64,000 nt of DNA, from NCBI RefSeq assembly GCF_002002885.1, contig NZ_CP019510.1, forward strand, positions 3,410,001 to 3,474,000, written 5' to 3'. A program made the position numbers and the translations under genes. The notes under the pieces were generated by a model. It saw only the letters and a program-made list of their open reading frames with translations, did no database searches and was not told the DNA's origin. This DNA is from Janthinobacterium sp. LM6. Its GTDB lineage: Bacteria; Pseudomonadota; Gammaproteobacteria; Burkholderiales; Burkholderiaceae_D. Positions 29,177-63,386 of this stretch are shown here, piece by piece. The first letter of the stretch is position 1. Each line of letters begins with the position of its first letter.

Positions 29177-29196
29177 CGCTGCCGCCGCGTCAAGGC
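29170..29196. terminator. Perfect hairpin spanning two convergent stop codons
   Basis: A perfect 10-bp stem (GCCTTGACGC with GCGTCAAGGC) around a 7-nt loop covers the stop codon of the dehydrogenase gene and the last codons of the giant gene. There is no U-run, so termination in either direction may be factor-assisted. Confidence 0.5.
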
Positions 29197-32100
29197 CGCA
29201 CCACCCAGCGCACGTCTTCGAGCGACAGCAGCAGTTGCTCGGGCGCGCCGTCCGTAAAGAAGTTCAGGCGGAAATCCATGGCGGCGCCGCCATCCGTGGT
29301 CGGCTGCTGCGTGTCATACCATTGCTGCACCTGGGCCACCAGCGCCATGGGCGCGGCGGGCGGCTGGGCCGCATCGATGGGCGCCAGCACGGCCGGCAGC
29401 AGGCTGACCGGCAGCGAGGTGCGGGGAAAACCCGCCACGGCCGGCATCACGCTGTAGGAATAGCTGCCATCCATGGCGATGCGCACGCTGCCCGAGGCGC
29501 CCGTGAAGAGGGCGTTGAAGAAGCCCCGCATATAGGCCGCCACGTCGCTGCCGCCCACCGGTGCGACTTGCCGCAAATCATAGCCTTGCCAGCTCAGGCG
29601 TGGCAGGATGGGGTCGCTGAACTTGACGACCGGCGTCTGGTACAGGAAGGCGGGCATGGTCGACACCTGCGTCTGGCTGGGCGGGCACAGGTAGCGGTTG
29701 CGCTGCACGTACAGCGAGGCCTGGGCGTTCTTGTACACCATCACGTTCAGCCCCGGCATGCGCACCTCGCGGCCGGTATTGGCCAGCGCGGCGGCAAACG
29801 ACAGGTCGGGCGCGGCGGCGGCGATGGCCGCGTAGCGGTAGGCCAGCAGCGCATCGGGCGGCGTGGGCGTGGCCGGCGTGGCCCGGTACTGCTGCGCATC
29901 GATGTCGAGCACGGGCACGGGCACGCTGACGATGCCGTTGCTCAGGGTGCCGGCCTGCGGGTCGTAGGTGGCGGGCGCGCCGCCGACGGTGACATTGAGC
30001 AGCGCATACCAGGCGTCGCCGCCATGGTCTTCCAGGCGCGCGTCGAATTCCACGGCCACGCTGGTCTCGCCTTGCGCCGCCGCCAGCCGCGCCGCGCCGA
30101 AATGCTGGCCATAGCTGGCTGCCACCTGGGTCACCAGCTGCTGGAAGGCGGTGGTGGCCAGAGTTGCCTTGGCGATACTATCGGCCGTGTCCTGCTTGCC
30201 GTCGAGGGGCGCGAGGAACGCGTCGAGGTCGGCCGAGATCAGCGGATAGTTGCTGACGAAGGCGGCCAGCGCCGTGAACAGGTCGGGACCGGTCGCCGCG
30301 GACAGCCTGGCAACCTGCGGCGGCACGTTGAGCACGACGCTGACGTGCACGGCATCCTGCGCCGCCTGGCGATAGGTGTAGCTGAAGCCGTAATCCCACT
30401 GTGCCAGCTGGGCCGGCTGCAAGCCAGCGGCGGCCAGGCGCAGGCGGCCGGCCTGCGGCGCGGCGGACGCGGTGGCGGTCTGCCGGTTGACCGTGGGCGG
30501 CACGGGCAGGGCGCGGTTCAGCACGGGGATGTATTGCGTACCATTGCCCAGCGCTACCTCGAACGGACCGGTGATGAACAGCAGCCACTGGCTTTGCATG
30601 TAGTTTTCGATGCCGGGCACGGGTTGCTGGTCGAATTCCATGTGCGTGATCTGATAGCGCAAGTCCAGCGGCACATAGGCCTGGCCTTCGACATTCTTCG
30701 AGATAAAGTTGAATGACAGCCGGCTCTGGTCCGCCACGGCCGTGCCCAGCAAAGGCAGCCGGGTCGGGAACAAGGTGTAGTTCTGGTTGCCGTCGCCGTC
30801 GGCTGTGCCCGCGCCGGCGGGCTGGCCGTACAGCGCCGGCGGCGCGTCCTTGTCTTTGTCGTCCGCGCCCGTGACCTGGTCCACGCCGTACACCACCACG
30901 GCGCCGGCGGCAAAGGCCGGCCCCAGGGTGGTCAGCAGCTGCTGCCGCATGGTGGCGGCCGCGCTGACGCGCGTGGCTTCGTCCGCGGCGCTGCTGCTGA
31001 GCACAGGGCTGACCGTGGCGCTGATGACGTCGGCCAGCGTCTGTTTCGCCTTGAGCACGAGGCCCAGCTGGCCGCTCTGCAGCGGATCGGCGACGCCGTT
31101 GAGGCGATCGAGGATGTAGGCGGGCGGCGCATAGGTGGCCGAGAGGAACTTGTCGATGGCGTCGAGACAGCTTTGCAGCCACAGGTTCAGGTCGACGCTA
31201 TTTAGCGTCAGCGCATGCGGCGTATTGCTTGGATAGGCGTCGATGCTGACCGTGCGGCTTTCCAGCGAATTGGCGACGGGCAACGGCGCGTAGTAGCTGG
31301 CTTGCTGGCCCAGGCGGAAATGGATGCCCTGGCCGGGCGTGTCGCTGAACCGCACGGCGAACAGCTGCTGCGTCTGCTGGCCGGCGCTGCCCACGCGCGT
31401 CAGTCCCGCGCCCGCGCGCATCGACCATTGCGGCGTCTTCAGGCACGCTTCGAGCGCCTTGGCAAACGTGGTGTAGCTGGACGCGCCGCCATCCGTGTCG
31501 GCCTGCGGCAGCACGGCGCTGACCACGCTGGCGCCGTCCGGCAGGGCCGCCAGCGCGGGATCGAGCAGGATGGCCTGGCGCGTCAGCACCAGCGCCACGT
31601 CGAGCGCGATGCGGTTGGCGCCGGCCAGTTGCGCCAGCGGCACCGGCACCGACAGCGTGGCGGCGGGCGCCTTGGCGCTGCCGCCGCCGGCCAGGGTCTG
31701 CAGGTAGATGGCGCAGGCGGCGGCGAAGTCGCGCACCTGCCGCGCTTGGGCCTCGCCCAGCGGCTGCAGCGGCGTGGCCAGCAGGGAGTTGCTGAGCGAG
31801 ATGCTCACCGCATTGCCGCTCAGTCCGGGCACGCCCAGGCCCGTATAGTCCTGGTGCAGCTGGAAGTACAGGCGCTGGTAGGTGGGCAAGTCTTGCATCG
31901 CATCGGCGGGCGTGGCGTAGGCCAGGCCATCCATGCGCAAGGTCAGCAGCAGCGCGGGCGCGCCGCCCGCATCGGTGCCATACAGGTAGCTGGCCTGGAC
32001 TTTCGGCCAGGCGGACAGGCCCAGCAGGCGATCCGTGTAGCGCAGCGGGGCGGGGGCCTGGTCCAGCGCGCCCGTGTAGCCGGCCGGCGGCGCCTCGAAC

Positions 32101-35100
32101 GGCGTCACGGTGGTGTTGCCGAACAGGTCTTGCCAGCGCAGGGCCAGCGACGCATGGCCGCCCACGCCCAGGTAGGGATTGTCGGCGGCGGGCGGCAGGC
32201 CGGCCGGTGGATTGGCCGGTGCCGCATTGAGCGTGGCGAACGGCCGTCCCTGGCTGTCGTTGCCCAGGTAGCCCAGCGCCTGGCGGTAGTCGTAATCGGC
32301 CAGGGCCGCGGCCGCATAGCGCCGGCGCTGCGCTTCGCCGGCGTCGCCGCCGTCGCCGTCGCCGTCGTTCGCATGGTCCTGCGGTCCGAAAGGCAGGCTG
32401 TAAGGACTGGGCAGGAAAAACGGGTTGCGGCCCAGGCCGGCCGACAGCGTGTTGTACAGCGCGGACAGGGTCGCTTGCGCATATTGCTGCTGTTGCTGCG
32501 GCGTGGGATCGGGCGGCAGCACGGGCACGCCGTCGTTGGTGCGCTTGAGCTGGAACGACAGGTTGCCCGGCGCCAAGGTCGCTTGTGCATCGAGGGCCAG
32601 GCTGTCGACGTCGAGCACGGCGCCATCGGCGTACAGGCCTTCGGTGTCGGCCGCGCCCAGGGCCAGGGCGTCCACCGACAAGCCGTAGTAGGCGGCCAGG
32701 GCGGCGAAGGTATTGCCGGGACCGTCAGAGGCGGCGGGCACGCGATAGACGAGCGGCGGAATGCGCATGGTTGCGCCCAGCGCCACCGTCACGCCGGGAT
32801 TGTAGGCGGCGATCTGTGCCGCGCTCAGCGGGGTGGCGCCTGCCGAGTAATACGCGGCCAGCCGCTCCAGCGCTTGCGCGGGCACGGCCATGTCTTGCTG
32901 GTTCAGCTGGTGCAGGATGCCGGCCACGGGCACGCTGGCGCCGGCGCGCAGCGGCCGCACGGCGTTTTGCCGCGCCAGCTGCCCCACGCCCATGCCGTAC
33001 GTGGCGGCCACGGCGTTCAGGGTGCGCGTGGCGGCCAGGGCCAAAGGCTGGCTCTTGGCCGGCTTGCTCAACGATTCGAACACCAGCACGTCCTGCTGCG
33101 GATCGATCGCCTGCGTCGTCAACAGCGCGTTGACGAAGTTCGGCACGGTGTCGGCGGCGCCCGCCGTCTGGCGCGCCAGCGGCACCACCAGGGTCAGCGT
33201 GGCCGTGCCCGTGGCGTCGAAGACGGATGGGGGCAGGCCGGCGCCCGACACCATGTCCTCGAAATACAGATAGTAGCCGCCGCCGCGCACCACCGATTGC
33301 TCCCACAGCAGCTTGATGAATTGCGAGGGGCTGTTGGCTATGCCGCGCGGCATGGCCGTCCCCGCCGCGTCCAGCAGCATGCGGCTGGCCGGCGGATGGC
33401 TTTCCGTGGACAGATTGGTTTGCGTCAGGAAGCACAGGTAGTCGGCATCGGCCTGGCCCGTCAGCGCCACCTGGTCGCTGCCGCCTTCGCTGTACAGCAG
33501 GAACAGGCCGGCCGCCAGGGTTTCGCCCACGGCGGCCATGCCGCTCAGCAGGTATTCCAGGCGCTGGGCATCGGCGGCCGACGGTCCCACCAGCTCGTAG
33601 ACGTGGGCCAGGGTGGCGGCGCTGGCCAGCGCGGTGCCGCTGGCGTCGTTGGTGGCCACAGTGGCGGCCGGCATGCGCGTGATCTGGAAGTCCACGCGCA
33701 TGGCGTAGGCATAGCCGTTCACGTCCTGGAACACCGTGCTGCTGCTGTTGGGCGGTGTGTTGCCGATGCGGGGACGATAGGCGGGCATCAGGGCGAGTAT
33801 GTCCGCGTATGGCGCCTGGGGGTACAGCGTCTGCAGCGTATCCTGGCGCTGGGCGATGCTGGCCAGCATGGCGTCGGGCAATTGCCACAGATACGGCGCG
33901 GGCGCGGCCTGGCTGGCGGCGGCGCGCACCCCCGAAGCGGCGCCTGACGTCACGGCCGTCAGGCGCGCCAGGTCGGCGGTGATCCAGGCGGCGTAGCCAG
34001 CCGCAGGGAACTGCCGCGGCTGCAAGGAAGCCAGCGGCAGGATCTGCAGCGCAGGCGACGGCACGAAGCTGCCCGCCTGCGCATACGCCAGCACGCCCGA
34101 CAGCAAGCCGTAGGCGGCGCCCAGGTCGATGGGCAGGCTGGTGCCGGGCGCGCCGGCGAAGGTGATGAAATCGAGGGCGACGCCATGCGACATGGCATTG
34201 CGTCCCAGGCCGATGCGGTAGCCGCCGGCGGCGCTGGCGGGCGTGGGGAATTGCTGGCCCGTCAGCTGGTACAGCGCGTAGTCGGTCTGCGTCTTGCTAT
34301 ACAGGAAGGATGGCGACAGGCTCAGGCCCGGCGCCACGGGCAGGCGCAAGCCATAGGTGATGAAGCGCGCGACCTGGCCGGCGGCCTGGGCCACGGCGCC
34401 GCTCGCCTGCACGCCTTGCCACAGCTGCTCCAGCGGCAAGGCGTCGAGGCGGGCGATGGCCAGCCGGCCCGGGGCCGCGGCGAACAGATTGGCGACGCCG
34501 GCATTGTCGCGCCCCAGCGCGGCCGTCGTGGCGGCGAAGCGGCTGGCGATGCCGGACAGGGTATCGCCGGCGACGGAAGTATAGGCCAGCGGCGGCACGG
34601 CGAGGATGGCCGTCGGCAGCAGCAGGTCGGCGCGCGCATACAGCGATGCCTGCTGCGCCAGGGCGGCCAGCGGCACGCCCAGCGCGGCGGCGATGGCGCC
34701 GAAGCTGTCGCCGGGCGCGGTGACGTGGCTGACGGCGCCGGCGCCGAAGTCGAAGACCAGCGTCACGCCCGTGCGCAGCGCGCGCGGTTCGGCATTCGCG
34801 CCGATCAGCTGGGCCGCGGTGGTTTGCCAGCGCCCGCCGGCGCCGGCCGGATCCGTGTAGCGGGCGGCGATGGCCGCCAGCGTATCGCCGGCCTGGATCA
34901 CGTCGGACAGGCCGCCGACCTGCAGCGGCAGCGCGCCGTTCAGCGGATACGCGGCATTCGGCAGCGACACGTCATCCGCGTCGATGGCGTTGCCGGCCCG
35001 GTTGAAGGCGGCGACGATGCCGGCGATGCTGTCGCCCGGCTGCAGCGCATAGCTGTAATTGTCGAAGGCATCGATGGCCGATTGCAGCAGCGCGCGGCCG

Positions 35101-38100
35101 ATCAGGCTGAAGACGTCGACGAAGATGAAGGCCGCCATCGATTCGGGCTCAGCGTCGTCCTGCGCCAGCATTGCGGGCTTGGCGGGCGCCTTGCCTACCC
35201 TGGCGGCCACCTGGCGCAGCACGCCGGCCACCGTGCTGCGGTACTGCTCAGTCGCCGTCGCGTAGGTCTCGAGGTCGATCGCTTGCGTGCCGGCGCCGCC
35301 TTGCGGGTCGGGGACGTTCAGCCGCAGCCCGTCGAACAGCGGGAATAGCGTGGCGCCGTCCATATTGGCGCCCGGCGCGCTGATGTTCACGGTGAAGCTG
35401 TCGCCGAGGAAGTGCAGCAGATCACCCATGCCGAACGGCTGCATGGCGGGGTCGGCCAGCACCTGGATGCCCGCCACCAGCTGCGCCAGCGTGACGCTGG
35501 CGGCCGCGGCGGCAACCAGGTCCAGCGCCGGGCCGTCGGCCCGCACCGCCGGCTGCAGGGCGTCGAGCAGCCACGGGAAATATGCTGTGCACAGCAGGTC
35601 GAACGAGGTCGTGCCGGTGCCCGCGCCGCCGGCGGCCGGGTCCGGCGCATCCATGGCGAACAGGCAGACGAACGCGCCTTGCTGCGCGCTGCTGGCCGTG
35701 GCGCCCTGCGGCGCCAGCACCGTGAATTGCGGCGCCGTCACCAGTTGCAGCACCGGTTTGGCACCGGTGCGCAGCACGCGGCGCGGCTGGCGGCGCGGCC
35801 CGGCGCGCAGCATGGCGGCCTGCAATTCCATCGGCAAGGTGCGCGCGCGGCCGCGCGCCAGGCTGTCCAGGCGCAGCGCGCCGCCGCCATCCCACGGCGC
35901 GCGGCTGTCGCTGCCGATGCGGAATTGCGCGCTGACGGTGGCGGAAAAGCCCACGGAAATGGTGAAGCTGAAGATGCCCAGGTCGATCTTGACGCGCAGG
36001 CTGATGCGCACCGAGGCCGTTACGGACAGGGGGATGGCGCGGTAGGATTCGTAGCCGATCTGCACCGACACGGTGATATTGACGAGCAGCGAAGCGCTGA
36101 TGATCTTCAAGTCCACTTCGCCGTACAGCATGCCGATCACGCCGAACGTGCCCGTCAGCTTGAAGTAGCTGCTTTCCTGGACGCTGCCGGACGCGCCGGC
36201 GTTGGCCAGCGCGACCGCGCTGCTGCGGTCGTACGGATGGTAGGTGGCGATCACGCCTTCGATGATGCCGAACACGGTCAGCGCGAAGCCCGCTTTCAGC
36301 GGCCCCTTGACGAAGTTGTAGCCCAGGCCCAGCTGCAGGCCCAGGCCGAAGACGATGACGGGATTGAAATACCCGAGCTCGGTTTTCGGCACCTGCGTCG
36401 CCGTCGCGCTCGACAACTTGCCGAAATACACGCCGCCCGAGCCCAGCACCGGCACGCCGTAGACGATGGCGCTGAAGCTGAACGAGCGCGTAAAGTCCAT
36501 ATTGTAGGGAAAACCGATGTCGATCAGGAAATCGCCATTCGTATAGATCTTGATGCCGATCATCGGCAGCACCACGCTGACGGCGCCGAAGTTCAGGTTG
36601 CGTATGCTGTCGGGGAAGGTGAAGTCGATCTGGAACAGGCCCACGTCGTCGCTGATCTTCTTGTACAGGATATCGACCACCAGGCCGGCCAGGCCGCCCA
36701 TCTTGGGGCTGCCCAGGGTCAGGCGCAGGCCGTACAGGTTGGGATCGTTGAAGACGATCTGCACGTCGACGGCCCACACGCCGGCGGTCTGCAGCACGCC
36801 GAAATGCGCGGCGATCAGCCAGTTGCTGTCCGGCTGGTAGTACGGCTGGCCGTGCACGCCGCTGCCCGGGTTGACGGGATTGTTCTTGCCCGTGGTGGGC
36901 GGCACGCCGGCCAGCGCGTCGATGACGGCCTTGGTCGAGCTGAAGTCGGACGCGCCGTTGATGGCCACGCGCTGGCCCAGCATCAGCAGGAAGACCTTGA
37001 AATAGCTGGAACCGGCGCCCGGCACGCTGGGCATCTCTTCCACGTCCTGGCCCTTGGCCGGGTCCAGCAGGTCGCCCATGCTGCCTTTGAGCAATGGCGG
37101 CACCGTGGCGTCCAGCGCCAGGGTCACCTTGCCGTCCGTATTGCGCTTGAAGACGATGCTGCGGATGACGATGAACCCGAGGTTGAGCGGTGAACTGAGC
37201 GTGTAGGTGGCGCTGAGGCGGTTCTTTTCGCCGGTTTTCAGCGAGACGTTGACGGACAGGCCGTCCAGCGTGACCTGGTTCAGCAAGTCCCACGGCGACG
37301 GCAGCACGAAATACGGATCGCCCAGCGTGCGCACGAGCGCCTGGATCAGGCTGCCCAGCGACCAGCCCGCCAGGGTGAAGCTGAGCATCTCGTTGCCGCT
37401 GGTATAGGTTGCCGTGAAGCCTTCCCAGCTCACGTACAGCGTGTGGTTCGGCCCCTTGTCCGTCGGCTGGAACGCATAGCCGAAGCCCAGCTTCAGATTG
37501 ATGGCGGTATAGATCCATACGGCATCGGCCTTGCCCGAGAATTGCTGCGCGGCCGGCTTGGCGCCGTCATACTGCACCGAGAGCGTGGCTTTCTGCAAGC
37601 CGATCTCTTGCTGGCCAAGCAGGAACAGCCAGGTAAAGGTGGTGTCGACCGTGTAGCTGGTGGCCAGGTCCGTGCTGGGCTTGCCGCTGGGAATGACTGC
37701 GTCGATGGCGAACGCGGAAATCTTCAGGTTGCCCGGCAAGAAGACCGGGAAATCATAGATGCCGCCGGCGGCAAAGAATTGCTTGATCATCTCGCCCACG
37801 TCGAGTTCTTGCGCGAGCGAGGCGGAGAGGGTCCAGCGGGGCGGCGTTTCCTGGCTGCTGTAGGCCACGCTGACGGCCGCCTGCAGGCTGGCGCCCACGC
37901 CCAGCAAGCCGGAAATGGAACCGGCCCAGGCCGTGCCGGCGCCCGCCTTGCCGGCATCGACAAGGATCAACGCGCCTTCCTGCTTGTCCGCGGCCACCGT
38001 GGCGCTGATGCCCGACAGGCTGATCTGGCCATCCGAAATGCTCAGGATGGGCGCGCCGCCCACCGTCAGGAAGGACAGGCTGATGGCGTAGTCGCTGGAA

Positions 38101-39716
38101 AACGCGAAGGACTGGGCCGCGCCGTCTATGCTCAGCGCGATATTCGACACCTCGGCCTGGATGCTGTCGGGCAGGCTGACGAGGCCGTTCGAGACGACGG
38201 ACAGGAAATCCGACAGCGTGGCCTTGCCGGGAAAGTTGGCCTGGAACAGTTGCGCCGAGTTGAACTGCACCTCGAATTCGCCGCCCGGCGTGCCGTCGAG
38301 GTTGCGAAATACCGTGGGCAACAGCGTGAAGGTGGTGCCGAACAGGTATTCATAGCGCGACTTGCCGCTGGCCTTGCTCGCCAGCGGCTGGTACGCCGTC
38401 CAGTCGAGGAAGAACGAGGTGACGGTAAAGCTCAGCTCGGGCGTGGGCGCCGGGATCGGTTGCCAGCTCAGATCGCGCACGCTGCGCAGCTGCAGCGTGA
38501 CCTGGTCCACCGTGGGCGCCGCCTTGGGCGGGATGCTGCCGCTGATGGTCATGCCGCCGAGGCCGAACGACGTCAGGAACTCCTGCAGCACGGCCGGGGT
38601 GGCGCGGAAATAGCTGGCGCCCCCGCCGATCAGGCCGATGGCGGCGGCGGGACTGAGGGGCGGCCCGTCGCTGCCCGCTTCCAGGCTGACCGCGTAGTTG
38701 CCGTCGCCTTCGGCGTTCGATGGCTGCAGCAGCAGCGACAGCGTGTAATCGGCGGCGCCTGCGCCTTCCACGCTGAGCGTGGCCGTCAGGGCCAGCGTGG
38801 CGGCCTGGTCGCCGTCGGCCGCTTCCTCGTCGTCCGGTTCGCCTTCGCCGCGCAGCAGCAGCTGCATGCCGTCGTCGAGCAGCAGGGCGTCGGGCGGCGG
38901 CGCATCGACGGGCGGCGGGATCGTCACGGTCAGGCTGGGCGCGGCCACGCGCAGGTAGCCGGCGAATGTGCAGTCGAGCTCGCTGAGCGTGGCCGACAGC
39001 ACGCCGCTGGGCATCAGGCCGCCCAGTTCGAACGTCTTGCCGTCGTACAGCGCCATGTCCAGGTAGCCGCCGATCTGCAGCTTGCCCGGCGGCGCCGCCA
39101 GGTCGGAAAACAGTTCCAGAAACGGCGTCACGAAGGCGGGCAGGGCCACACTGGCGCTGAGATTCTGCTTGGCGCCCCCTGTGACGGGCAGCGCGCCGTC
39201 GCCGCCCCATGGATAGACGCCGTCGGCGCTGGAAAACACCAGCAGCGCACCCGACAACGGCAACTCGCTGAACGGCCAGCCGCCCATGAAGGGAAAGCTG
39301 CTGTCCCAGTTCCAGTCGGCGGGACTGGCGGCCGCCTGCACCACCAGCACGGCCGCGTCATCCCCGTCGTCATCGTCGTTGTCGCCCGGCGTGCGCGCGG
39401 CGGCAGGCTGGGTGGAAAACACCAGCGTGGCCGGGGTGTGCAGCAGGCCGCCGATGAAGGGCAGGCTCGCCTTGCTGACCGTAAACACGCCGTCGCTGAC
39501 GGCGCCCACGTCGGCTGGCGCGCAGCTGATCAGGAACTGCGCCGCGTCGATCTGGAATGCCTGGCCGATGATGGCGTCGAATTTTTCGGGCGGCGCGACG
39601 TCCGGGTCGGCCAGGCCCGCTTCCAGGAAGGCGGCATCGAGGGCGAACGGGCCGCTGCTGGCGGCGTTGACGATGGCTTGCTGCAGGTTTTCCAGCGCGG
39701 TATCGGTGGTGGCCAT
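29190..39716 (-). CDS. Giant 3508-residue beta-rich protein with internal LysM-like repeats
   Basis: I do not recognise the full protein. It has no signal peptide or convincing membrane helix. Residues 1-1275 are mainly predicted beta-strand; about 1040-1275 is a run of amphipathic strands (LLVNITVSVQIGYESYRAI, GVYFGKLSS, LGLQLGLGYNF) reminiscent of DUF6603-type regions, from memory. A basic linker follows (about 1280-1320). LysM-like repeats cluster at about 1555-1745 (QAGDTLAAIAARYTDP, VAGDTLSGIASRFA, TAPGDSFGAIAAALGV) and again at 2235-2360. The C-terminal 1100 residues have mixed beta-structure with no known motif. Acidic loops (GDNDDDDGDD, PDDEEAADGD) are scattered. An AGGAGC ribosome site precedes the ATG. 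It is last in a coupled operon with the EEP and 1222-residue genes. Scaffold, toxin or lipid-handling roles are all possible. Confidence 0.8.
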   Translation of the reverse strand: MATTDTALENLQQAIVNAASSGPFALDAAFLEAGLADPDVAPPEKFDAIIGQAFQIDAAQFLISCAPADVGAVSDGVFTVSKASLPFIGGLLHTPATLVFSTQPAAARTPGDNDDDDGDDAAVLVVQAAASPADWNWDSSFPFMGGWPFSELPLSGALLVFSSADGVYPWGGDGALPVTGGAKQNLSASVALPAFVTPFLELFSDLAAPPGKLQIGGYLDMALYDGKTFELGGLMPSGVLSATLSELDCTFAGYLRVAAPSLTVTIPPPVDAPPPDALLLDDGMQLLLRGEGEPDDEEAADGDQAATLALTATLSVEGAGAADYTLSLLLQPSNAEGDGNYAVSLEAGSDGPPLSPAAAIGLIGGGASYFRATPAVLQEFLTSFGLGGMTISGSIPPKAAPTVDQVTLQLRSVRDLSWQPIPAPTPELSFTVTSFFLDWTAYQPLASKASGKSRYEYLFGTTFTLLPTVFRNLDGTPGGEFEVQFNSAQLFQANFPGKATLSDFLSVVSNGLVSLPDSIQAEVSNIALSIDGAAQSFAFSSDYAISLSFLTVGGAPILSISDGQISLSGISATVAADKQEGALILVDAGKAGAGTAWAGSISGLLGVGASLQAAVSVAYSSQETPPRWTLSASLAQELDVGEMIKQFFAAGGIYDFPVFLPGNLKISAFAIDAVIPSGKPSTDLATSYTVDTTFTWLFLLGQQEIGLQKATLSVQYDGAKPAAQQFSGKADAVWIYTAINLKLGFGYAFQPTDKGPNHTLYVSWEGFTATYTSGNEMLSFTLAGWSLGSLIQALVRTLGDPYFVLPSPWDLLNQVTLDGLSVNVSLKTGEKNRLSATYTLSSPLNLGFIVIRSIVFKRNTDGKVTLALDATVPPLLKGSMGDLLDPAKGQDVEEMPSVPGAGSSYFKVFLLMLGQRVAINGASDFSSTKAVIDALAGVPPTTGKNNPVNPGSGVHGQPYYQPDSNWLIAAHFGVLQTAGVWAVDVQIVFNDPNLYGLRLTLGSPKMGGLAGLVVDILYKKISDDVGLFQIDFTFPDSIRNLNFGAVSVVLPMIGIKIYTNGDFLIDIGFPYNMDFTRSFSFSAIVYGVPVLGSGGVYFGKLSSATATQVPKTELGYFNPVIVFGLGLQLGLGYNFVKGPLKAGFALTVFGIIEGVIATYHPYDRSSAVALANAGASGSVQESSYFKLTGTFGVIGMLYGEVDLKIISASLLVNITVSVQIGYESYRAIPLSVTASVRISLRVKIDLGIFSFTISVGFSATVSAQFRIGSDSRAPWDGGGALRLDSLARGRARTLPMELQAAMLRAGPRRQPRRVLRTGAKPVLQLVTAPQFTVLAPQGATASSAQQGAFVCLFAMDAPDPAAGGAGTGTTSFDLLCTAYFPWLLDALQPAVRADGPALDLVAAAAASVTLAQLVAGIQVLADPAMQPFGMGDLLHFLGDSFTVNISAPGANMDGATLFPLFDGLRLNVPDPQGGAGTQAIDLETYATATEQYRSTVAGVLRQVAARVGKAPAKPAMLAQDDAEPESMAAFIFVDVFSLIGRALLQSAIDAFDNYSYALQPGDSIAGIVAAFNRAGNAIDADDVSLPNAAYPLNGALPLQVGGLSDVIQAGDTLAAIAARYTDPAGAGGRWQTTAAQLIGANAEPRALRTGVTLVFDFGAGAVSHVTAPGDSFGAIAAALGVPLAALAQQASLYARADLLLPTAILAVPPLAYTSVAGDTLSGIASRFAATTAALGRDNAGVANLFAAAPGRLAIARLDALPLEQLWQGVQASGAVAQAAGQVARFITYGLRLPVAPGLSLSPSFLYSKTQTDYALYQLTGQQFPTPASAAGGYRIGLGRNAMSHGVALDFITFAGAPGTSLPIDLGAAYGLLSGVLAYAQAGSFVPSPALQILPLASLQPRQFPAAGYAAWITADLARLTAVTSGAASGVRAAASQAAPAPYLWQLPDAMLASIAQRQDTLQTLYPQAPYADILALMPAYRPRIGNTPPNSSSTVFQDVNGYAYAMRVDFQITRMPAATVATNDASGTALASAATLAHVYELVGPSAADAQRLEYLLSGMAAVGETLAAGLFLLYSEGGSDQVALTGQADADYLCFLTQTNLSTESHPPASRMLLDAAGTAMPRGIANSPSQFIKLLWEQSVVRGGGYYLYFEDMVSGAGLPPSVFDATGTATLTLVVPLARQTAGAADTVPNFVNALLTTQAIDPQQDVLVFESLSKPAKSQPLALAATRTLNAVAATYGMGVGQLARQNAVRPLRAGASVPVAGILHQLNQQDMAVPAQALERLAAYYSAGATPLSAAQIAAYNPGVTVALGATMRIPPLVYRVPAASDGPGNTFAALAAYYGLSVDALALGAADTEGLYADGAVLDVDSLALDAQATLAPGNLSFQLKRTNDGVPVLPPDPTPQQQQQYAQATLSALYNTLSAGLGRNPFFLPSPYSLPFGPQDHANDGDGDGGDAGEAQRRRYAAAALADYDYRQALGYLGNDSQGRPFATLNAAPANPPAGLPPAADNPYLGVGGHASLALRWQDLFGNTTVTPFEAPPAGYTGALDQAPAPLRYTDRLLGLSAWPKVQASYLYGTDAGGAPALLLTLRMDGLAYATPADAMQDLPTYQRLYFQLHQDYTGLGVPGLSGNAVSISLSNSLLATPLQPLGEAQARQVRDFAAACAIYLQTLAGGGSAKAPAATLSVPVPLAQLAGANRIALDVALVLTRQAILLDPALAALPDGASVVSAVLPQADTDGGASSYTTFAKALEACLKTPQWSMRAGAGLTRVGSAGQQTQQLFAVRFSDTPGQGIHFRLGQQASYYAPLPVANSLESRTVSIDAYPSNTPHALTLNSVDLNLWLQSCLDAIDKFLSATYAPPAYILDRLNGVADPLQSGQLGLVLKAKQTLADVISATVSPVLSSSAADEATRVSAAATMRQQLLTTLGPAFAAGAVVVYGVDQVTGADDKDKDAPPALYGQPAGAGTADGDGNQNYTLFPTRLPLLGTAVADQSRLSFNFISKNVEGQAYVPLDLRYQITHMEFDQQPVPGIENYMQSQWLLFITGPFEVALGNGTQYIPVLNRALPVPPTVNRQTATASAAPQAGRLRLAAAGLQPAQLAQWDYGFSYTYRQAAQDAVHVSVVLNVPPQVARLSAATGPDLFTALAAFVSNYPLISADLDAFLAPLDGKQDTADSIAKATLATTAFQQLVTQVAASYGQHFGAARLAAAQGETSVAVEFDARLEDHGGDAWYALLNVTVGGAPATYDPQAGTLSNGIVSVPVPVLDIDAQQYRATPATPTPPDALLAYRYAAIAAAAPDLSFAAALANTGREVRMPGLNVMVYKNAQASLYVQRNRYLCPPSQTQVSTMPAFLYQTPVVKFSDPILPRLSWQGYDLRQVAPVGGSDVAAYMRGFFNALFTGASGSVRIAMDGSYSYSVMPAVAGFPRTSLPVSLLPAVLAPIDAAQPPAAPMALVAQVQQWYDTQQPTTDGGAAMDFRLNFFTDGAPEQLLLSLEDVRWVVRP

Positions 39717-39783
39717 ACGAACTTGCTCCTTGAATCAGTCATGATGTCCGGGGCGGACGCTCGCACCCGCCCGGACGCTCTGT

Positions 39784-41283
39784 CTACAGCACGGCAAACA
39801 GCGCCAGGTGGTCGCTGGTGCTGCGCAGGTAGCCGTAATTGGCCCAGCCGTTCAGCGTGCGCGCCTGGCCCACGGCATACACGGCCGCCGGCGATTGCGG
39901 CCAGACCATGCCGGCAGGCACGTTCGGAAATTGCGCGGGCAGGGCGCGCGTGCCGGTGGGCACGCCCGGGGGCATGGCGCCCGCCACCGTGAACGGCGTG
40001 CCCGAGACGGGGTTCATCACCGTGAACTGGTAGTTATTCGCCGGCACCAGCGGGTTGACGAGCATATTGTCGATCGAGAAAAAGTTGCTCACCATATCGC
40101 TGCCGATATAGTTATAGCCGGGATACGGCGCCGCCACCAACGCGCCGCCGGCCGTATTGTCGGACCACAGGAAGCGCGATTGCTGCGTCAGCTGCTGCTT
40201 GGTGCGCTTGGGGCGGATATGCGTGGCCAGATAGCCCTGATACGCGTCCAGCGTCAGGTTGGCGGCCGCCGGCATGACGGGCGGCGGGTCCAGCAGCGGT
40301 ATGTAGTTGATCGCGCGCAACTGGTCGTAGGCCGTCGTCCGCCCGCCTGCCGCTGGCGGCTGCGCGTAGATGGCGTTCAGGTTGAAGTCGCCGCAGATCA
40401 GCTTGATTTCATTGTGCGGCGCGCCGGCGGGCGCCGCCGCCACGTCGAGCACGCCGCGCAGCAGGATATTGATGAAATTGGTGGCGCCGCCGTGGTTGGG
40501 CGGCGCATGCACGGCAAACAGGGTCAGGTTGCGCGTGATGGCATTGGCCTGGTTGGTTTCCACGAAACTGACCATGAAGGGCTGGCGCAAGCCGTTGAAA
40601 TTGACCAGGCCGCCAGCAATGGGCGGCGTGGCTGGCGCCGGCGCGGGCGCGAAGGCGATGCGCGCCGCCGCCATGCCCTCGGCCAGGCCGCCGTTGTACT
40701 GCGCGCCGGCCGGGATGGTGCGCGCCGGCTGGCCTTGCGGGTTGAGCAAATCCTGGATGTCGGGCGTGCCGGCGCCCCCGGCCGGGTAGGCGGCGGGCAC
40801 GGCGCCGGCCGCCACGGCCGACACGCCGCCGCCCGTCCACACGTTCGGCCCCGTGAAATAGCGCCGCACTTCCGTGGGCGTGCCAACCGTGCCCGATATG
40901 CCGCGGTACAGCACGGCGACCGATTCCGTGCGCCCGCCCGTGCCGACTTTCAGCGGCGGCACCATGCGCCAGGCAGCGCGGTTGGGGTCGGCTGGGTCGG
41001 TGCGCAGCTGTTGCAGCAGGAAGATCGCGCCCTGCAGGCCGCCCGTGTCGGGCGCCAGGTCGCCGACGCCGGCCGCGCTGGCCGACACCTCGATCAGGAC
41101 GAAAATATCGGGCTGCGTGGCGCGCAGGATGGTCAGGATGTGGTTGCGGCGCTGCAGCGCGGCCACGGCCGGCAGGTTACCGCCGCAGCGGCCGCCTTCG
41201 CCATAGCGGGGCCGCTTGCGGCTGGGATTGTTGACCTTGTTGATGCCGAAGTTCTCGATATTCCAGTACACGACGTTGGTCAT
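39784..41283 (-). CDS. EEP-superfamily (DNase I-like) phosphoesterase
   Basis: The product is 499 residues. All core EEP catalytic motifs are present: Asn8 in VVYWNIENFGIN, Glu65 in FVLIEVSAS, Asp299 and Asn301 in ICGDFNLN, and Asp491-His492 in STSDHLALF. It should be a metal-dependent phosphodiesterase or nuclease. There is no signal peptide. The spacing is stretched by Pro/Ala/Gly-rich insertions relative to the usual 250-300-residue enzymes. Its ATG overlaps the stop of the 1222-residue gene (ATGA), and it ends 67 bp before the giant gene, so it is an integral member of the locus. DNA, RNA or lipid phosphates could be the substrate. Confidence 0.85.
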   Translation of the reverse strand: MTNVVYWNIENFGINKVNNPSRKRPRYGEGGRCGGNLPAVAALQRRNHILTILRATQPDIFVLIEVSASAAGVGDLAPDTGGLQGAIFLLQQLRTDPADPNRAAWRMVPPLKVGTGGRTESVAVLYRGISGTVGTPTEVRRYFTGPNVWTGGGVSAVAAGAVPAAYPAGGAGTPDIQDLLNPQGQPARTIPAGAQYNGGLAEGMAAARIAFAPAPAPATPPIAGGLVNFNGLRQPFMVSFVETNQANAITRNLTLFAVHAPPNHGGATNFINILLRGVLDVAAAPAGAPHNEIKLICGDFNLNAIYAQPPAAGGRTTAYDQLRAINYIPLLDPPPVMPAAANLTLDAYQGYLATHIRPKRTKQQLTQQSRFLWSDNTAGGALVAAPYPGYNYIGSDMVSNFFSIDNMLVNPLVPANNYQFTVMNPVSGTPFTVAGAMPPGVPTGTRALPAQFPNVPAGMVWPQSPAAVYAVGQARTLNGWANYGYLRSTSDHLALFAVL

Positions 41284-44200
41284 GCTGCGCTCCCCAATGA
41301 AATGGCAGGCAATGGCAGCGCGGCCAGTGCCTGCTCCTGGCGGGCGGCCGCATCGGCGATGTATGCGGCATACCAGCCCAGGCTGCCCGTATTCTTCGGG
41401 TCGCCAAACAGGAAGAACTGGATGTTCGCGTCGGGCGGCAGCTTGGCGATGCCGAGGAACTTGATGGCGATGTTGTCGAGCCGCAGGCAATAATAGTAGG
41501 AGTCGCCGTCGGGCACTTTTTGCCGCATCAGCCCGATATTGTCGATGGCCAGCTTGAAGATGCCTTGCAGGCTGATCAGCCTGGCGCCAGGCGCCGCGCC
41601 GGGCAGCGACAGACCGACGAAGACGGCTTGCTCGTCGTCGCCAGCCGTGCTGGCGGGCGACCAGGCCAGCAGCAGGGTCGAGTGGAAGCCGGCGGCCGAG
41701 ACGAGCGCGCCCGGCCCGCCCATGGTGACGTCGTACACGACGCCGTGCCATGGCCCGTCGAGCGTGCCCAGGTTCAGCGCCGTGCTGACGGGCAGGAAGC
41801 CGAAATCGGCCGGCTTTTGCCCGTCGGCGGCCGCGATAAAGCCCGACAGTTCCAGGCCGAAGCCCTTGAACAGGCTGTCCGGCCTGGCCTGGCTGGCGTC
41901 GAGGTCGTAGGCCAGGCTGGCCGTCACCTCGTCGAAGCGCACGGCCGACGGCGTCGTCTGCGGATAGCGCATGTCGATCACCAGGTTGGAAAAGGCCAGG
42001 CCTGCGCCGTCCGGCGGCAGGTCCGGCGCCAGCGCGCCGAACGACAGCAGGTCCAGCGCGGCGCCCGCGCGGTCGTCCAGGCTGGCGAAGTCCAGCGTGC
42101 CCCAGACGGAAAAACGGTTCAGCACGGTCGCGCCCGCGTCGGTGGTGCCCAGGCAGTTGAACTGGATGCGCTGGAAAGCCACGTGGCGCAGCAGATTGCT
42201 GTCGAGGCTGAATATCGACGGCGTGGCTTGCTCGAAGATGTAGATGCCGGTGCCGTTCTGGTCGATATAGCTGCCGTCGAGGACCACGCCGTTGTTCGGC
42301 ATCGCATTGCCGCCGAAGGTGGTGGCCGTCACGCGCGAGCCGAGCAGGCCGTTGACGGCCAGCTGCACGTAGCTCTTGAAGGTCTTGATGACGGCATTGT
42401 CGAACAGCACCTGCAATTGCAGCACGCGGAATGCATAGTTGTCGGTGTCGGGCAGGGCGATCGGCGTATCGGGCGGCAAGCCGTTGCGCTGGCCGGCGGC
42501 GAAGGCAGGGTCCTGATAGTCGACCAGGCCGAAGGTGCTGGAATTGCCGTCGAGGGTGATGCTGCCGTCGCCATGCACCGTCACGCGGCTGGCCGTGAAG
42601 CCGAAATGGTGGGCGACGAAGCGCGTCAGGTCGAGGCCGGCCGCGATGCCCTGCAGGCCGGGCGGCAGACTGGACGGATCCAGGTCCGCCTGCAGCACCA
42701 GCACGCCCGTCCAGGCGGGATCGCTGACCAGTTCCAGGAAATGCCGGTACGGCGATTCGGGCTTGTCCGCCGCCAGCACCTCGGCCGCTTCGATGAGGTC
42801 CTGCAGCCACTGCGACAGCCCCGTGTAGGCGATGCCCTGGACGCCGGGGCCGGCGTCGGCGGCCAGCGAAAAATCGGGCGCGCCCGACCAGGCGTTCGGA
42901 TTGGCGACGCGGTCCCTGACACTGCCGCTGCAATACTTGAGCAGCATCACGTTGCGGTAGGACGTGGGCGTCACGCCGACGCCCACCTGCGCTTGCATGG
43001 TCCAGCCCGCGATGCCCACGGTATTGTCGAAGCGCGCGCCGCCGTCCGACAGGTGGGCCGCGTTGACGGCCACGAGGAACAGCTGGTTGGTCTGCAAGGC
43101 ATCCTGCAAGGTGGCGTCCGGGAAGCGGAAGCCGAACGGCAAGACCTGGCCGCCGCCGCCCAGGGTCTGGCCCAGGGTCACCGACAGGAAGGCGTCCTGG
43201 TCCTGCGCCTGGCTGGACACGGTGGCGACCGCTCCCTGCGGCGTGGTGCGGTAGTGCGGCGCTTCCGCCACCGCCTCGCCGGCGGCCAGTCCGCGCACGC
43301 GGCGGCTGGCGGCCGCGCGCGCCTGCCAGGTGGCGCCGGCGCCGCTGGAAATGACGGCCTTGCGCGTGGCGGCCACGATGCTGCTTTCAAAGCTCGACAG
43401 CAGGGCGGCGTCGATGTCCAGCGGGCCGCCGCTGACGGCGCCGCCATACGGCAGCAGGGGAAAGGCGTGCGCGGCGCCCTGCGGCACGGGCAGCGCGGGC
43501 GGCGTCGAGGCGAGCACGGTATCGGCGGCCACGGCGCGCAGCAAGGCGGCCGCCCGGGCGGCCGGCGGCAGGCCGTACATGGGACTGCCCGCCGGCTCCG
43601 CATGGTATTGCGGCATGGCCGCGCCGCCCTTGAGCACGCTGGCCCAGCAACTGAGGTAAACGGCCGTCAGCGGCGTGGCCACGTTGCCGGAATCGGGCAA
43701 GTCCAGGGTCGCGGCCTGGAACGGGAAGACGGGCGCGTAGGCGGGCGAGGCGGGCACGAACAGCAGGCTGTCATTCTCCGGCGCGCCGCCGTCATAGGTG
43801 GTCATGCTCAGCTGTTCCGAGCCGAAGATGCCGCATAACAAGTTTGTCTGCGTCCCGTCAGCCTGGCCGGTGGCGCTCAGGCCGAAGCGCCCGGCCGGCG
43901 TCAGCAGGGCCTTGCTGGTCGCGGGCGCAGACGGTGACCGCGCGGCGCAGCCAAAGGCCAGGGCGCCCGACTGCAGGCCGATCACGGGCGGCTGCCCGCT
44001 GGCGGCGCCCAGCGGCCGCAAGGTCGTCGCATGGCCCAGCGCCGTGCGGTAGGTGGACGGCAAGGCGGGCCGGTCGGCCGGCAGCAAGCCGCAGCGCAAT
44101 ACCCCTTCCAGCCTCGCCTGGGCGGACAGCTTCTGATTGTAGGGATCGAGCGGGTCGACCGTGCCGACCCAGGCCAGGCTGGCCGACAGCTTGGCGGGCG

Positions 44201-44948
44201 CGCTCAGCGCCGGGTAGAACAGCTGCTGCAGCTGGCCGCTGGCCGTATCGCGCGCGGTCATGGGGAAGCCGACGGCCAGGCCGCTTGGGCCGAAGGTGAC
44301 GGGAGGGTTGACGGTGGCCGTAAACGTCAGGCAGCCCGCATTCGCGCCCGCCAAAGGCACGAACGTGCGGATCGTGCTGCCGCTGCCCGTGACGCGTATG
44401 CCGATGTCGCCGGCGTTGCGCTGGAAGGCCAGCGCCGGCGGCGTCGCCAGCGGCGCGGACAGCCGCAGACAGCCGCTGACGGCGTCGATGGACAGGCCGA
44501 CGCCGGACAGCACGTTGAACAGCAGGTCCTGTCCCAGCCGGAAATTGACGTTGGTGCTGGTGGCAAAGCCCATGGTCAGCTGGTTATAGGTGTAGCTGCA
44601 GCCGTAGTTCTTGAAGGAATCAGACGGCGCCGCATCGGTGTCGCGCAGCCACAGCAGCGCGTTCAGGTTCAGTCCCGGCGCCGACGACTGCCGGTCGATA
44701 TAGGCGACGAGGGCGGCGATGAAGGGGCCGGGCGCCGCGTCCAGCGCCGCCGGACGGGCGCTGGCAAACACGTAGCTGCCCATGCGCTGCGGCGACAGGC
44801 TGTCGGCATAGCTGATGCTGTCCGGGGGCGTGGCCGGCGGCGCGACGGGCGGCAGCAGGTAGCCGGCCCAGGCATGGTCCGCCTGCGGCGGCGATTCATA
44901 CAGGCTGACCTTGCTGGCGGGATCGGTGGCGACGAAACTGAAACCCAT
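41280..44948 (-). CDS. 1222-residue hypothetical beta-rich protein of the giant locus
   Basis: I do not recognise the family. The product is acidic, rich in Ala, Gly, Ser and Leu, with no signal peptide and no membrane helix. Most of it is short alternating hydrophobic strands. The C-terminal 150 residues (LRLDNIAIKFLGIAKLPPD, FFLFGDPKNTGSLGWYAAY) look like a conserved module, and this style resembles the beta-rich half of the 3508-residue partner. GGAGG lies 7 bp before the ATG at 44948. It is translationally coupled to the EEP gene. Cysteines are few and irregular, so a cytosolic or unconventionally secreted structural protein is plausible. Confidence 0.75.
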   Translation of the reverse strand: MGFSFVATDPASKVSLYESPPQADHAWAGYLLPPVAPPATPPDSISYADSLSPQRMGSYVFASARPAALDAAPGPFIAALVAYIDRQSSAPGLNLNALLWLRDTDAAPSDSFKNYGCSYTYNQLTMGFATSTNVNFRLGQDLLFNVLSGVGLSIDAVSGCLRLSAPLATPPALAFQRNAGDIGIRVTGSGSTIRTFVPLAGANAGCLTFTATVNPPVTFGPSGLAVGFPMTARDTASGQLQQLFYPALSAPAKLSASLAWVGTVDPLDPYNQKLSAQARLEGVLRCGLLPADRPALPSTYRTALGHATTLRPLGAASGQPPVIGLQSGALAFGCAARSPSAPATSKALLTPAGRFGLSATGQADGTQTNLLCGIFGSEQLSMTTYDGGAPENDSLLFVPASPAYAPVFPFQAATLDLPDSGNVATPLTAVYLSCWASVLKGGAAMPQYHAEPAGSPMYGLPPAARAAALLRAVAADTVLASTPPALPVPQGAAHAFPLLPYGGAVSGGPLDIDAALLSSFESSIVAATRKAVISSGAGATWQARAAASRRVRGLAAGEAVAEAPHYRTTPQGAVATVSSQAQDQDAFLSVTLGQTLGGGGQVLPFGFRFPDATLQDALQTNQLFLVAVNAAHLSDGGARFDNTVGIAGWTMQAQVGVGVTPTSYRNVMLLKYCSGSVRDRVANPNAWSGAPDFSLAADAGPGVQGIAYTGLSQWLQDLIEAAEVLAADKPESPYRHFLELVSDPAWTGVLVLQADLDPSSLPPGLQGIAAGLDLTRFVAHHFGFTASRVTVHGDGSITLDGNSSTFGLVDYQDPAFAAGQRNGLPPDTPIALPDTDNYAFRVLQLQVLFDNAVIKTFKSYVQLAVNGLLGSRVTATTFGGNAMPNNGVVLDGSYIDQNGTGIYIFEQATPSIFSLDSNLLRHVAFQRIQFNCLGTTDAGATVLNRFSVWGTLDFASLDDRAGAALDLLSFGALAPDLPPDGAGLAFSNLVIDMRYPQTTPSAVRFDEVTASLAYDLDASQARPDSLFKGFGLELSGFIAAADGQKPADFGFLPVSTALNLGTLDGPWHGVVYDVTMGGPGALVSAAGFHSTLLLAWSPASTAGDDEQAVFVGLSLPGAAPGARLISLQGIFKLAIDNIGLMRQKVPDGDSYYYCLRLDNIAIKFLGIAKLPPDANIQFFLFGDPKNTGSLGWYAAYIADAAARQEQALAALPLPAISLGSAA

Positions 44949-45128
44949 GACAACCTCCACTCAAGACGCGACTCGGGCTGCGATGCGGCGGCATGGCTGC
45001 CGCGCGGCAACGCAATCGTTTACAACGGGTGGGCCCGGAAGGGCGTCGGATGGCCAGGCGGCTTGCCTGGATGCGGTGGCGGGCGGCCATCCAGAGCGCC
45101 CGCCCGCAGGCGGGCGCGGAACCGCCGC

Positions 45129-45506
45129 TTACTGCGAGTTGGAGGTAAAGGTGGCCAGCACGAAGCCCGTGTAGCTGTACACGGTGCCGCCGTCGACGAT
45201 GTCGCCGGAGAGCAGCACGTTATACAGGCCCGTGCTTTGCGGCGAGTAGGTGACCGTCAGGCCGGCTTTCCACGTGACGACGCCGTTGCCCGTGTCGCTG
45301 GCCAGCTTGGCCGTGGTGAAACCGGTGGTGACGCTGGGATTCCAGTACGTGGTGCGGCCCTGGAACTGGAAGGCGATGCCGGTCTGGTTGTTGCTGTCGC
45401 CGCTGGCGATGGACAGCGCGATGCTGTTCGGCGTGGTGTTGGTGGTGACGCTTTGGCCGGAAGCCAGCGTATGGTTGGTGACTTCGACGCGAGGTAAGTT
45501 AGACAT
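45129..45506 (-). CDS. 125-residue beta-rich protein, cytosolic paralogue
   Basis: The product is 125 residues, nearly all beta-strand, with no Cys and no signal peptide. It begins MSNLPRVEVTNHTLASGQSV. The start at 45506 is chosen because GGAG lies 7 bp upstream; an ATG at 45518 lacks a ribosome site. The second half (GVVTWKAGLTVTYSPQSTG then YNVLLSGDIVDGGTVYSY) aligns strand for strand with the exported protein at 45968-46426. It lies 180 bp upstream of the 1222-residue gene in the same direction and is probably the first gene of the operon. The fold resembles small beta-sandwich binding domains; function unknown. Confidence 0.75.
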   Translation of the reverse strand: MSNLPRVEVTNHTLASGQSVTTNTTPNSIALSIASGDSNNQTGIAFQFQGRTTYWNPSVTTGFTTAKLASDTGNGVVTWKAGLTVTYSPQSTGLYNVLLSGDIVDGGTVYSYTGFVLATFTSNSQ

Positions 45507-45967
45507 GACATTCTCCATGAGGTGATATCGGCCTGCACTTGCGGTGGGCGCCCCGTGGCCGACAGGTTCGGGGCAGTTGGGTAAGTCGGTGGAAACGGCA
45601 TTGCAACGGCTTTGCGACCATGCCATAAAAATATGGCGGGACAATACGCAATTTCAAATAAAGACAAGACATTTGATATTAATCAATCCGTAATTGATTA
45701 ATATATTTCTTATTTGCTTATTCAAAAAAAATAGTTTCCGGCTATTCGGAATATAACCATGTCGGCTCTTGCGCATGACGAGTAGCGATTCTATGCCTAT
45801 TTTTTTGCGCGATTCTCTCGAATTGTCGCAAAAGCAAGAATAATGGGGCGTCCGGAGGCGGTGCGGGAATGCGCCGCCGGCCATTTTTCGCGGCGGCAGG
45901 CAAGCGGGATAGGAAATGCAATTGAATATAAACGGTTTATTGATTTAAATAGATGGCATGCGCGGCT
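45507..45967. promoter_or_regulatory. AT-rich 461-bp intergenic region, probable promoter of the giant locus
   Basis: No credible gene lies here. About 45640-45760 is far more AT-rich than the rest of the window, with long A- and T-runs, as expected for a silenced or horizontally acquired promoter. On the minus strand TTGAAA and TATTTT lie about 18 bp apart (near 45620-45655) and could be a sigma-70 promoter. The perfect inverted repeat at 45677-45705 lies just upstream of it. Confidence 0.5.
45677..45705. repeat. Perfect 12-bp inverted repeat, candidate operator
   Basis: ATATTAATCAAT and ATTGATTAATAT form exact 12-bp arms around the 5-nt spacer CCGTA. The size and symmetry suit a dimeric TetR-, MarR- or LysR-like regulator. 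It lies 171-199 bp upstream of the 125-residue gene. No regulator gene is adjacent. A role as an RNA hairpin is less likely because of the low stem stability. Confidence 0.6.
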
Positions 45968-46426
45968 TTATTGCGCGGCCGGCGCAGGCAGGGCCGGACA
46001 GCGTTCAAAAACGGCTACCACCTTGCCAGTCAGCGTGTATTGCGTGCCGTCATCGAGGATGGGGCCATCGATGAGGATTTGATATTGCTGCGGACCGAGC
46101 GCCTGGAAACGCAGGGTCAGTCCTTTCTGGAACGTCACGACGGTATCGCCGCGGTCGGCGCCCAGCTGCAGCAGGATATTCGCCGTCGACAATAAAACCG
46201 TCCAGTACGCGGTGCCGTTGGCGCGCAGCGCCACCAGGGTGTTGTCATTGATATCGTTGCTGGCCGTGGCGACGGCGTCGCTGTTGACCGTCAGCGCCAT
46301 GGTTTGCGGCGCCCGGCACGCGGGGGCCGGTTCTGCCAGCTGGCGCGCCAGCGCCGGGGCGTCGCCACCGAGCGATAGCAGCAGCACGGCAGCCAGCCAG
46401 GGGCCGCGCCAATTCAGCTGATACAT
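45968..46426 (-). CDS. Exported paralogue of the 125-residue protein
   Basis: The product is 152 residues with an N-terminal signal (GPWLAAVLLLSLGGDAPALA). The mature part contains GDTVVTFQKGLTLRFQAL, YQILIDGPILDDGTQYTL and GKVVAVFERC, matching the neighbour's GVVTWKAGLTVTYSPQ, YNVLLSGDIVDGGTVYSY and GFVLATF in order and spacing. Two Cys (CRAP near the mature N-terminus and ERCP near the end) could form a disulfide, consistent with a periplasmic or surface location. The ATG at 46426 has a weak ribosome site. It is divergent from the LtrA-like gene. This pairing suggests that the same fold is used inside and outside the cell. Confidence 0.75.
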   Translation of the reverse strand: MYQLNWRGPWLAAVLLLSLGGDAPALARQLAEPAPACRAPQTMALTVNSDAVATASNDINDNTLVALRANGTAYWTVLLSTANILLQLGADRGDTVVTFQKGLTLRFQALGPQQYQILIDGPILDDGTQYTLTGKVVAVFERCPALPAPAAQ

Positions 46427-46594
46427 GGTGGAGGTGGTGTTCCGCGCATGCGACCCATCGTAACGAAATTCGGCCGGAAGAGCAAACGCATGCCGACCGC
46501 AGGGCGTCGCCATGGCCGCCATCCCCATCTGCTATCATCGTGCCGTTTTGGCCAGCGCCGCGGGCGCCGGTCCGGTATTTATGCAAGGAAAAAA

Positions 46595-61231: not shown

Positions 61232-61297
61232 GGGTGCCCTGCAAGATCTTGCAGCGGCCAGTCAGCGGATGCCCATGCGGGCGCAGTGCCCTGGGGA

Positions 61298-61669: not shown

Positions 61670-61802
61670 GCAACCTCTGGTGTAAATTTAAAATAGATGA
61701 TCTCTTGTCACGTCACGTTTGGACGCCCGCTCCTGGCACTTCCTGGCATTCGAATTGAACAATTCGGGACTTTCCCGAATATGCTCGTTCAGAACTTCGA
61801 AG

Positions 61803-63066: not shown

Positions 63067-63197
63067 CGTCGATTTTTTGCGCAGCACCACGGCCTTCATG
63101 CCGTGGAGGCGAAGCGGAGATCCGCTGCGGTGGCTTGCCTGTCGCTCCGTTGTTGCCACCAGTAAATACTCATATCAGTCTGCACGCTGGGTAAGTT

Positions 63198-63304: not shown

Positions 63305-63386
63305 GCTTTGCCAAAGCGCACGCTCAACGACCAAATTCAGTGACGCAGAATACCAGTGTGCAACGACGAGTTAGAATGAAAAACAT

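What the first reader, a model, noticed from the sequence alone, without database searches (positions are those of the whole stretch)
29190..46426. Undescribed giant-protein locus: 3508-residue LysM/beta protein, EEP phosphoesterase, 1222-residue protein and small beta proteins
Three genes are tightly packed in one direction (ATGA overlap and a 67-bp gap) behind a fourth gene. The combination of a giant beta-rich LysM-bearing protein, an intact EEP enzyme and a second huge beta-rich protein matches no system I know. None of the large proteins has a signal peptide. An AT-rich control region suggests silencing or horizontal origin. Possible roles include an intracellular scaffold, a released toxin complex or envelope/lipid handling.
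Basis: partly seen in the sequence, partly recalled or inferred. Interest (0 to 1): 0.95.

Follow-up and report, generated by a model that had tools for sequence, protein, structure and literature searches.

The report
Giant barrel-protein enzyme-delivery operon
A 17-kilobase block of five genes, present in some Janthinobacterium chromosomes and absent from the same spot in others, encodes a 3,508-residue protein and a 1,222-residue protein whose genes keep the same order in bacteria of seven phyla, with a predicted enzyme of exchangeable type usually encoded between them; together they likely form a machine, not found described in our searches, that would carry that enzyme to other cells.

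Summary
In detail: a 3508-aa LysM protein, a 499-aa EEP-family protein and a 1222-aa protein lie head to tail (67-bp gap, ATGA overlap) behind two small beta proteins. It is not a local oddity. A genome scan kept 79 giant loci in six phyla; the 77 not cut by a contig end all carry the 1222 homologue on the same strand, ahead of the giant or fused to it. Plasmids add Bacillota. The middle slot is exchangeable: EEP in 47 of 79, metallo-beta-lactamase-like protein in 9, another conserved domain in 10. The giant's N-terminal ~300 residues are detected in 47 of 47 EEP loci but 1 of 32 others, suggesting docking. Within the genus the block is a 17.4-kb presence/absence insert: filled in 5, empty in 26 of 31 genomes. 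AlphaFold models the 1222 protein confidently without a clear PDB match and gives the giant a porin-like region, yet no giant has a signal peptide, even in monoderm bacteria. My searches found no paper or defence model describing it. Best reading (about 0.35): a cytosol-made, released complex delivering the enzyme. Lipid-handling, own-envelope and defence roles remain open.

The parts
29171..46609 (.). the whole insert: 17.4-kb presence/absence block between two core genes
   Evidence: blastn of empty sites in 7 congeners ends at window 29154-29170 and resumes at 46610; flank searches
29190..39716 (-). giant protein, 3508 aa, LysM-bearing, beta-rich, no signal peptide
38817..39716 (-). N1: giant residues 1-300, detected with the EEP enzyme (47 of 47 EEP loci, 1 of 32 others)
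35916..37013 (-). giant residues 902-1267: predicted porin-like beta-barrel region, within the best conserved part
   Evidence: AlphaFold model of residues 340-1339, PDB comparison, strand amphipathy, core profile in 79 of 79 loci
34536..35051 (-). first LysM cluster, four LysM-like repeats (by eye) at giant residues 1556-1727
   Evidence: Pfam PF01476, two stretches, self profile comparison, positions
32661..33029 (-). second, degenerate LysM-like cluster, giant residues about 2230-2352
   Evidence: self profile comparison matches it to the first cluster, probability 96.8; positions
39784..41283 (-). EEP-superfamily protein, 499 aa, catalytic residues N8, E65, H259, D299, N301, D405, D491, H492 present
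41280..44948 (-). 1222-aa protein, constant partner of the giant, confident AlphaFold model without clear PDB match
45129..45506 (-). small beta protein, 125 aa, no signal peptide
45507..45967 (.). AT-rich control region (46.6% GC), with a weak promoter-like match at 45657-45628 on the minus strand
45968..46426 (-). small beta protein, 152 aa, signal-peptide-like start, 33% identical to the 125-aa one

Best explanation
The locus encodes a giant protein, its constant 1222-residue partner and a predicted hydrolase, which likely assemble in the cytoplasm into one complex that, once released, would bind a target cell wall and pass the hydrolase across a membrane. Shown: fixed order 1222-(enzyme)-giant across phyla, exchange of the enzyme family in the middle slot, gain or loss as one block, purifying selection, catalytic residues present, no signal peptide on the giant. 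Predicted: the giant's residues 902-1267 form a porin-like amphipathic barrel and its LysM repeats bind N-acetylglucosamine polymers (peptidoglycan or chitin). Inferred: the enzyme docks on the giant's N-terminal ~300 residues (that stretch is detected with the EEP and not when another type fills the slot; in some loci another conserved domain is fused there); the 1222 protein caps or shields the complex; the small beta protein without signal peptide belongs to the complex, and its secreted paralogue occupies the producer's own receptor or neutralises it. Release route and target are unknown.
Confidence: 0.35

Rival explanations
1. An intracellular lipid- or storage-handling assembly: the giant's amphipathic sheets coat or carry lipid as large lipoproteins do, and the EEP acts as a lipid phosphodiesterase or phosphatase.
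Against: LysM repeats, a secreted small paralogue, exchange of the EEP for another hydrolase-like fold, and rare strain-level presence are not expected of housekeeping lipid handling.
Confidence: 0.2
2. An anti-phage defence system in which the giant and the 1222 protein sense infection and the exchangeable enzyme is the effector.
For: Rare, all-or-nothing presence at one site and effector exchange in a fixed slot are typical of defence systems (the comparison is recalled).
Against: No PADLOC model matches the five proteins at E up to 1; LysM, a porin-like barrel and secreted partners do not fit cytosolic defence; neighbours were only read by eye.
Confidence: 0.13
3. A structure of the producer's own envelope or matrix, exported by an unknown route and anchored by LysM and barrel.
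For: LysM and porin-like fold; secreted small paralogue.
Against: No signal peptide in any of 81 giant ORFs; the same core in monoderm bacteria with no outer membrane; a nuclease- or phosphatase-type enzyme has no clear role there.
Confidence: 0.15

Closest known systems
Insecticidal toxin complexes (Tc/ABC toxins)
   Same: Several very large signal-less proteins made from one locus, a channel and a carried enzyme (as proposed here); all recalled.
   Different: No Tc or RHS Pfam family is found in any of the five proteins; the enzyme is a separate gene, or a domain is fused at the N-terminus, not a C-terminal toxin of a cocoon; the predicted channel is a beta-barrel.
Polymorphic toxin systems (Zhang et al. 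2012, PMC3482391; two passages seen)
   Same: Exchange of the toxin part (abstract start); LysM among the adhesion-related domains named there.
   Different: Here no C-terminal toxin exchange and no identified immunity gene; the enzyme sits in its own gene in mid-operon.
Outer-membrane porins and other large beta-barrels (OmpT, OprD, SlpA, LptD)
   Same: Predicted barrel of long amphipathic strands in the giant's core.
   Different: No signal peptide, embedded in a 3500-aa protein, and present in monoderm bacteria.
EEP superfamily (DNase I, sphingomyelinase C)
   Same: Catalytic residues kept; weak profile matches to both.
   Different: About 500 aa, no signal peptide in the window protein, encoded with the giant and the 1222 protein.
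PixA/AidA inclusion-body proteins
   Same: A PixA protein (E 1.4e-26) lies near an operon of this kind in Oscillatoria, on the other strand.
   Different: The window's two small proteins have no PixA match.

Membership tests
EEP superfamily | conserved metal and catalytic residues (Asn, Glu, His, Asp-x-Asn, Asp, Asp-His) | tested here: met
   Pfam PF03372 above cut-off; the eight residues present in the window protein and in 47-49 of 49 ORFs from loci; their roles are recalled
LysM proteins | LysM domains above the family cut-off | tested here: met
   51.1 bits against a cut-off of 20.9
Outer-membrane beta-barrel proteins | closed barrel of amphipathic strands | tested here: inconclusive
Outer-membrane beta-barrel proteins | Sec signal peptide | tested here: not met
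   none of 81 giant ORFs by a crude hydrophobicity rule
Tc/ABC toxins | TcA, TcB and RHS-type TcC domains | tested here: not met
   no such Pfam family at E up to 1 in the five proteins
Contractile injection systems (eCIS, phage tails) | sheath, tube and baseplate genes | tested here: not met
   no PHROG match at E up to 0.01 in the five proteins; one weak Dit-like tail match (E 0.19) in the 125-aa protein; none noticed by eye in the window's ORF list
Polymorphic toxins | adjacent specific immunity gene | tested here: inconclusive
   no named immunity family; the secreted small paralogue could serve as one but nothing shows it
Known anti-phage defence systems | match to a PADLOC model | tested here: not met
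   no match at E up to 1 for five proteins (library of 2023)
PixA family | Pfam PF12306 match of the small proteins | tested here: not met
   none for the window's small proteins at E up to 1; met only by a neighbour in L067
DUF6603 (PF20248) | profile match in the giant or the genome | tested here: inconclusive
   no match in this genome, but the family rang in none of the control genomes either; no match at E up to 1

The most novel reading that the evidence does not exclude
A new class of secretion-independent enzyme-delivery machine: a 2500-4000-residue translocon that combines a cell-wall-binding LysM array with a porin-like barrel, capped by a 1200-residue partner of new fold, loaded at its N-terminus with an exchangeable hydrolase, and spread between phyla as one mobile block.
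Probability: 0.33. Interest if true: 0.93.

Novelty: categorically new. Interest (0 to 1): 0.76.

Why it matters
A gene pair encoding two very large proteins keeps its order in seven phyla, exchanges its enzyme partner and comes and goes as one block between closely related strains, yet has no family model for most of its parts in the libraries searched and no paper that my searches could find. If the delivery reading holds, it would be a further way for bacteria to move proteins into other cells, with a defined docking stretch; if not, it is still a widespread system whose function can now be tested by deletion in harmless environmental strains.

Tried and rejected

Limits. Signal peptides were judged by my own hydrophobic-window rule, which also flagged 3 of 75 1222 ORFs and 3 of 35 clustered EEP ORFs, and two F39 proteins that I regard as false calls. 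ORFs in loci were called mechanically, so starts are approximate. EEP numbering is 6 higher than in the real protein. Rows dropped before the distance and tree analyses: 7 of 79 loci (no 1222, fused, partial or over-long 1222 frame). The fused F40 domain was aligned in 4 of the 7 loci counted as fused; the other 3 (L061, L065, L070) were assigned by giant length and start. Group labels are mine; Pseudomonas, Pedobacter and Streptomyces were each split in two because they hold two types, and L026 was left out. Of 8 plasmid records with a match I looked at 6.

Full report
Observation. The window's three large genes are as described: giant 29190..39716 (3508 aa), EEP 39784..41283 (499 aa), 1222-aa protein 41280..44948, all on the minus strand, with a 67-bp gap and an ATGA overlap. 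Upstream lie a 125-aa small protein without signal peptide (45129..45506), an AT-rich stretch (45507-45967, 46.6% GC; window 65.3%) and a 152-aa small protein with a signal-peptide-like start (45968..46426). Above their cut-offs Pfam sees only LysM and the EEP fold; NCBIfam, PHROGs and PADLOC give nothing significant. The large genes are under purifying selection against four congeners (L007-L010): omega 0.21-0.26 for the giant, 0.24-0.40 for the EEP, 0.24-0.31 for the 1222 gene; the two small genes are too short for firm values (0-0.50).

A block that comes and goes. The genome is of the genus Janthinobacterium: contigs of its congeners G018, G026, G033 and G063 have the same lengths as contigs titled Janthinobacterium. 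Of 40 congeneric genomes, the own one included, 31 have both flanking genes as strong matches on one contig; in 5 (G000, G018, G026, G033, G063) they are 17.4 kb apart and in 26 they are 32-466 bp apart (my count). blastn of seven empty sites ends at window 29154-29170 and resumes at 46610; a filled site (G063) aligns throughout at 95%. None of the five genes matches an integrase or transposase. The five genes thus come or go together. G024 has an empty site here but a divergent copy (36% in the 1222 protein) on another contig.

A system in seven phyla. A scan of the 84,980-species collection with two conserved peptides of the giant gave 93 relatives; the best 80 were kept as 79 loci. By record title they lie in Pseudomonadota, Bacteroidota, Acidobacteriota, Cyanobacteriota, Actinomycetota and Chloroflexota. 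The 1222 profile hits in 77 of 79; in the two misses (L026, L063) the contig begins with or just before the giant. In all 77 it is on the giant's strand, ahead of it or fused to it. Eight plasmid records match the 1222 protein; the six that I looked at all have 1222, an optional gene and the giant (twice split in two) in this order, with one or two small genes ahead in four of them; they add Bacillota (Paenibacillus, Lysinibacillus). 1222 and giant distances agree (rho 0.90 over 72 loci). In the 1222 tree the phyla interleave (Pseudomonadota 7 changes and Bacteroidota 6, at least 5 forced by well-supported branches for each); several joins rest on long branches, and this alone does not prove transfer. 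It is rare: 6 of 398 Pseudomonadota genomes, the own one included, match the 1222 profile, and 3 of those 6 have shorter relatives and no giant.

The exchangeable slot. Between 1222 and giant lie EEP in 47 of 79 loci, MBL-like proteins in 9, F40 in 2, small F9/F102 genes in 8, nothing in 10 (in 7 of these the giant's N-terminus carries an F40-like domain, one is a 1222-giant fusion), other in 1, and 2 lack the 1222 gene (one of them, L063, has F40). Pfam E-values of MBL representatives are 1.7e-4 for F19 (just under the cut-off) and 6.5e-10 for F28. EEP catalytic residues are kept in 47-49 of 49 ORFs. The F28 proteins keep HxHxDH in 5 of 5 and the F19 proteins in 0 of 5. The giant's residues 1-300 are detected in 47 of 47 EEP loci and in 1 of 32 others (L057; L026 is cut by the contig end), while the core profile hits all 79. 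Collapsed to 50 groups: 29 of 29 against 1 of 21. The profile was built mainly from EEP-type giants, so strong divergence rather than absence is possible; either way this stretch changes with the enzyme, which suggests that the enzyme docks there. In Chitinophaga and others the F40-like domain is fused at this very place.

Small proteins. The two in the window are paralogues (33% identity). Signal-less and secreted relatives of one family stand together in at least 21 of 75 loci by a crude rule, many of these loci being close relatives. Different loci use different small families (F3, F4, F5, F6, F39). This pairing is unexplained; a released partner plus a secreted self-protection or receptor-blocking copy is my guess.

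Mechanism and rivals. I commit to a cytosol-assembled, released enzyme-delivery complex (about 0.35). What counts most for it: exchangeable hydrolase-like protein in a fixed slot, co-varying N-terminus, wall-binding and barrel-like parts, no signal peptide, all-or-nothing presence. What counts most against: no release or recognisable immunity gene, unknown substrate, ordinary purifying selection, modest barrel model. Lipid handling (0.20), own envelope (0.15) and phage defence (0.13) remain.

Novelty. No family library, fold search or paper search named this combination. The parts EEP and LysM are known kinds; the system is not a member of any kind that I tested. Hence categorically new, with the mechanism open.

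Noticed in passing
G024 contig C94:11315-19724 (L006): A second, divergent copy of the system (1222 about 36% identical, a divergent EEP, a 3809-aa giant frame) in a congener whose usual site is empty.
   Followed up: partly
L105 1483-2247, L103 1396-2268, L102 1483-4188: Shorter ORFs (254, 290, 901 aa) related to parts of the 1222 protein, in genomes without a giant; perhaps solitary or decayed forms.
   Followed up: partly
L079 6287-16600; L104 397-4590: The 1222 and giant parts fused in one frame (3437 aa; 1740 aa in G426), a hint that the two proteins touch.
   Followed up: no
L029 5632-9915: More than one EEP ORF in the slot of a Bacteroidetes MAG (SZAS-92; three ORFs hit, two of them overlapping).
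   Followed up: no
L067 798-1313 (and 1-363): A PixA-family inclusion-body protein, with a clustered relative beside it, on the opposite strand about 1.7 kb before the 1222 gene in Oscillatoria; only the first was scanned.
   Followed up: partly
L069-L078, between 1222 and giant: Small F9/F102 proteins whose start resembles, by eye, the start of the shortened giants, as if the giant's N-terminal unit had been duplicated as separate genes.
   Followed up: no
empty sites L095, L096, L099 and G006:C78: Empty sites come in two lengths, 32-158 bp in 22 and 432-466 bp in 4 genomes; the longer form may hold another small element.
   Followed up: no
window 60212-64000: An integrase-like ORF (by eye) next to a low-GC stretch (48-56%) at the right end of the window, possibly a separate mobile island.
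   Followed up: no
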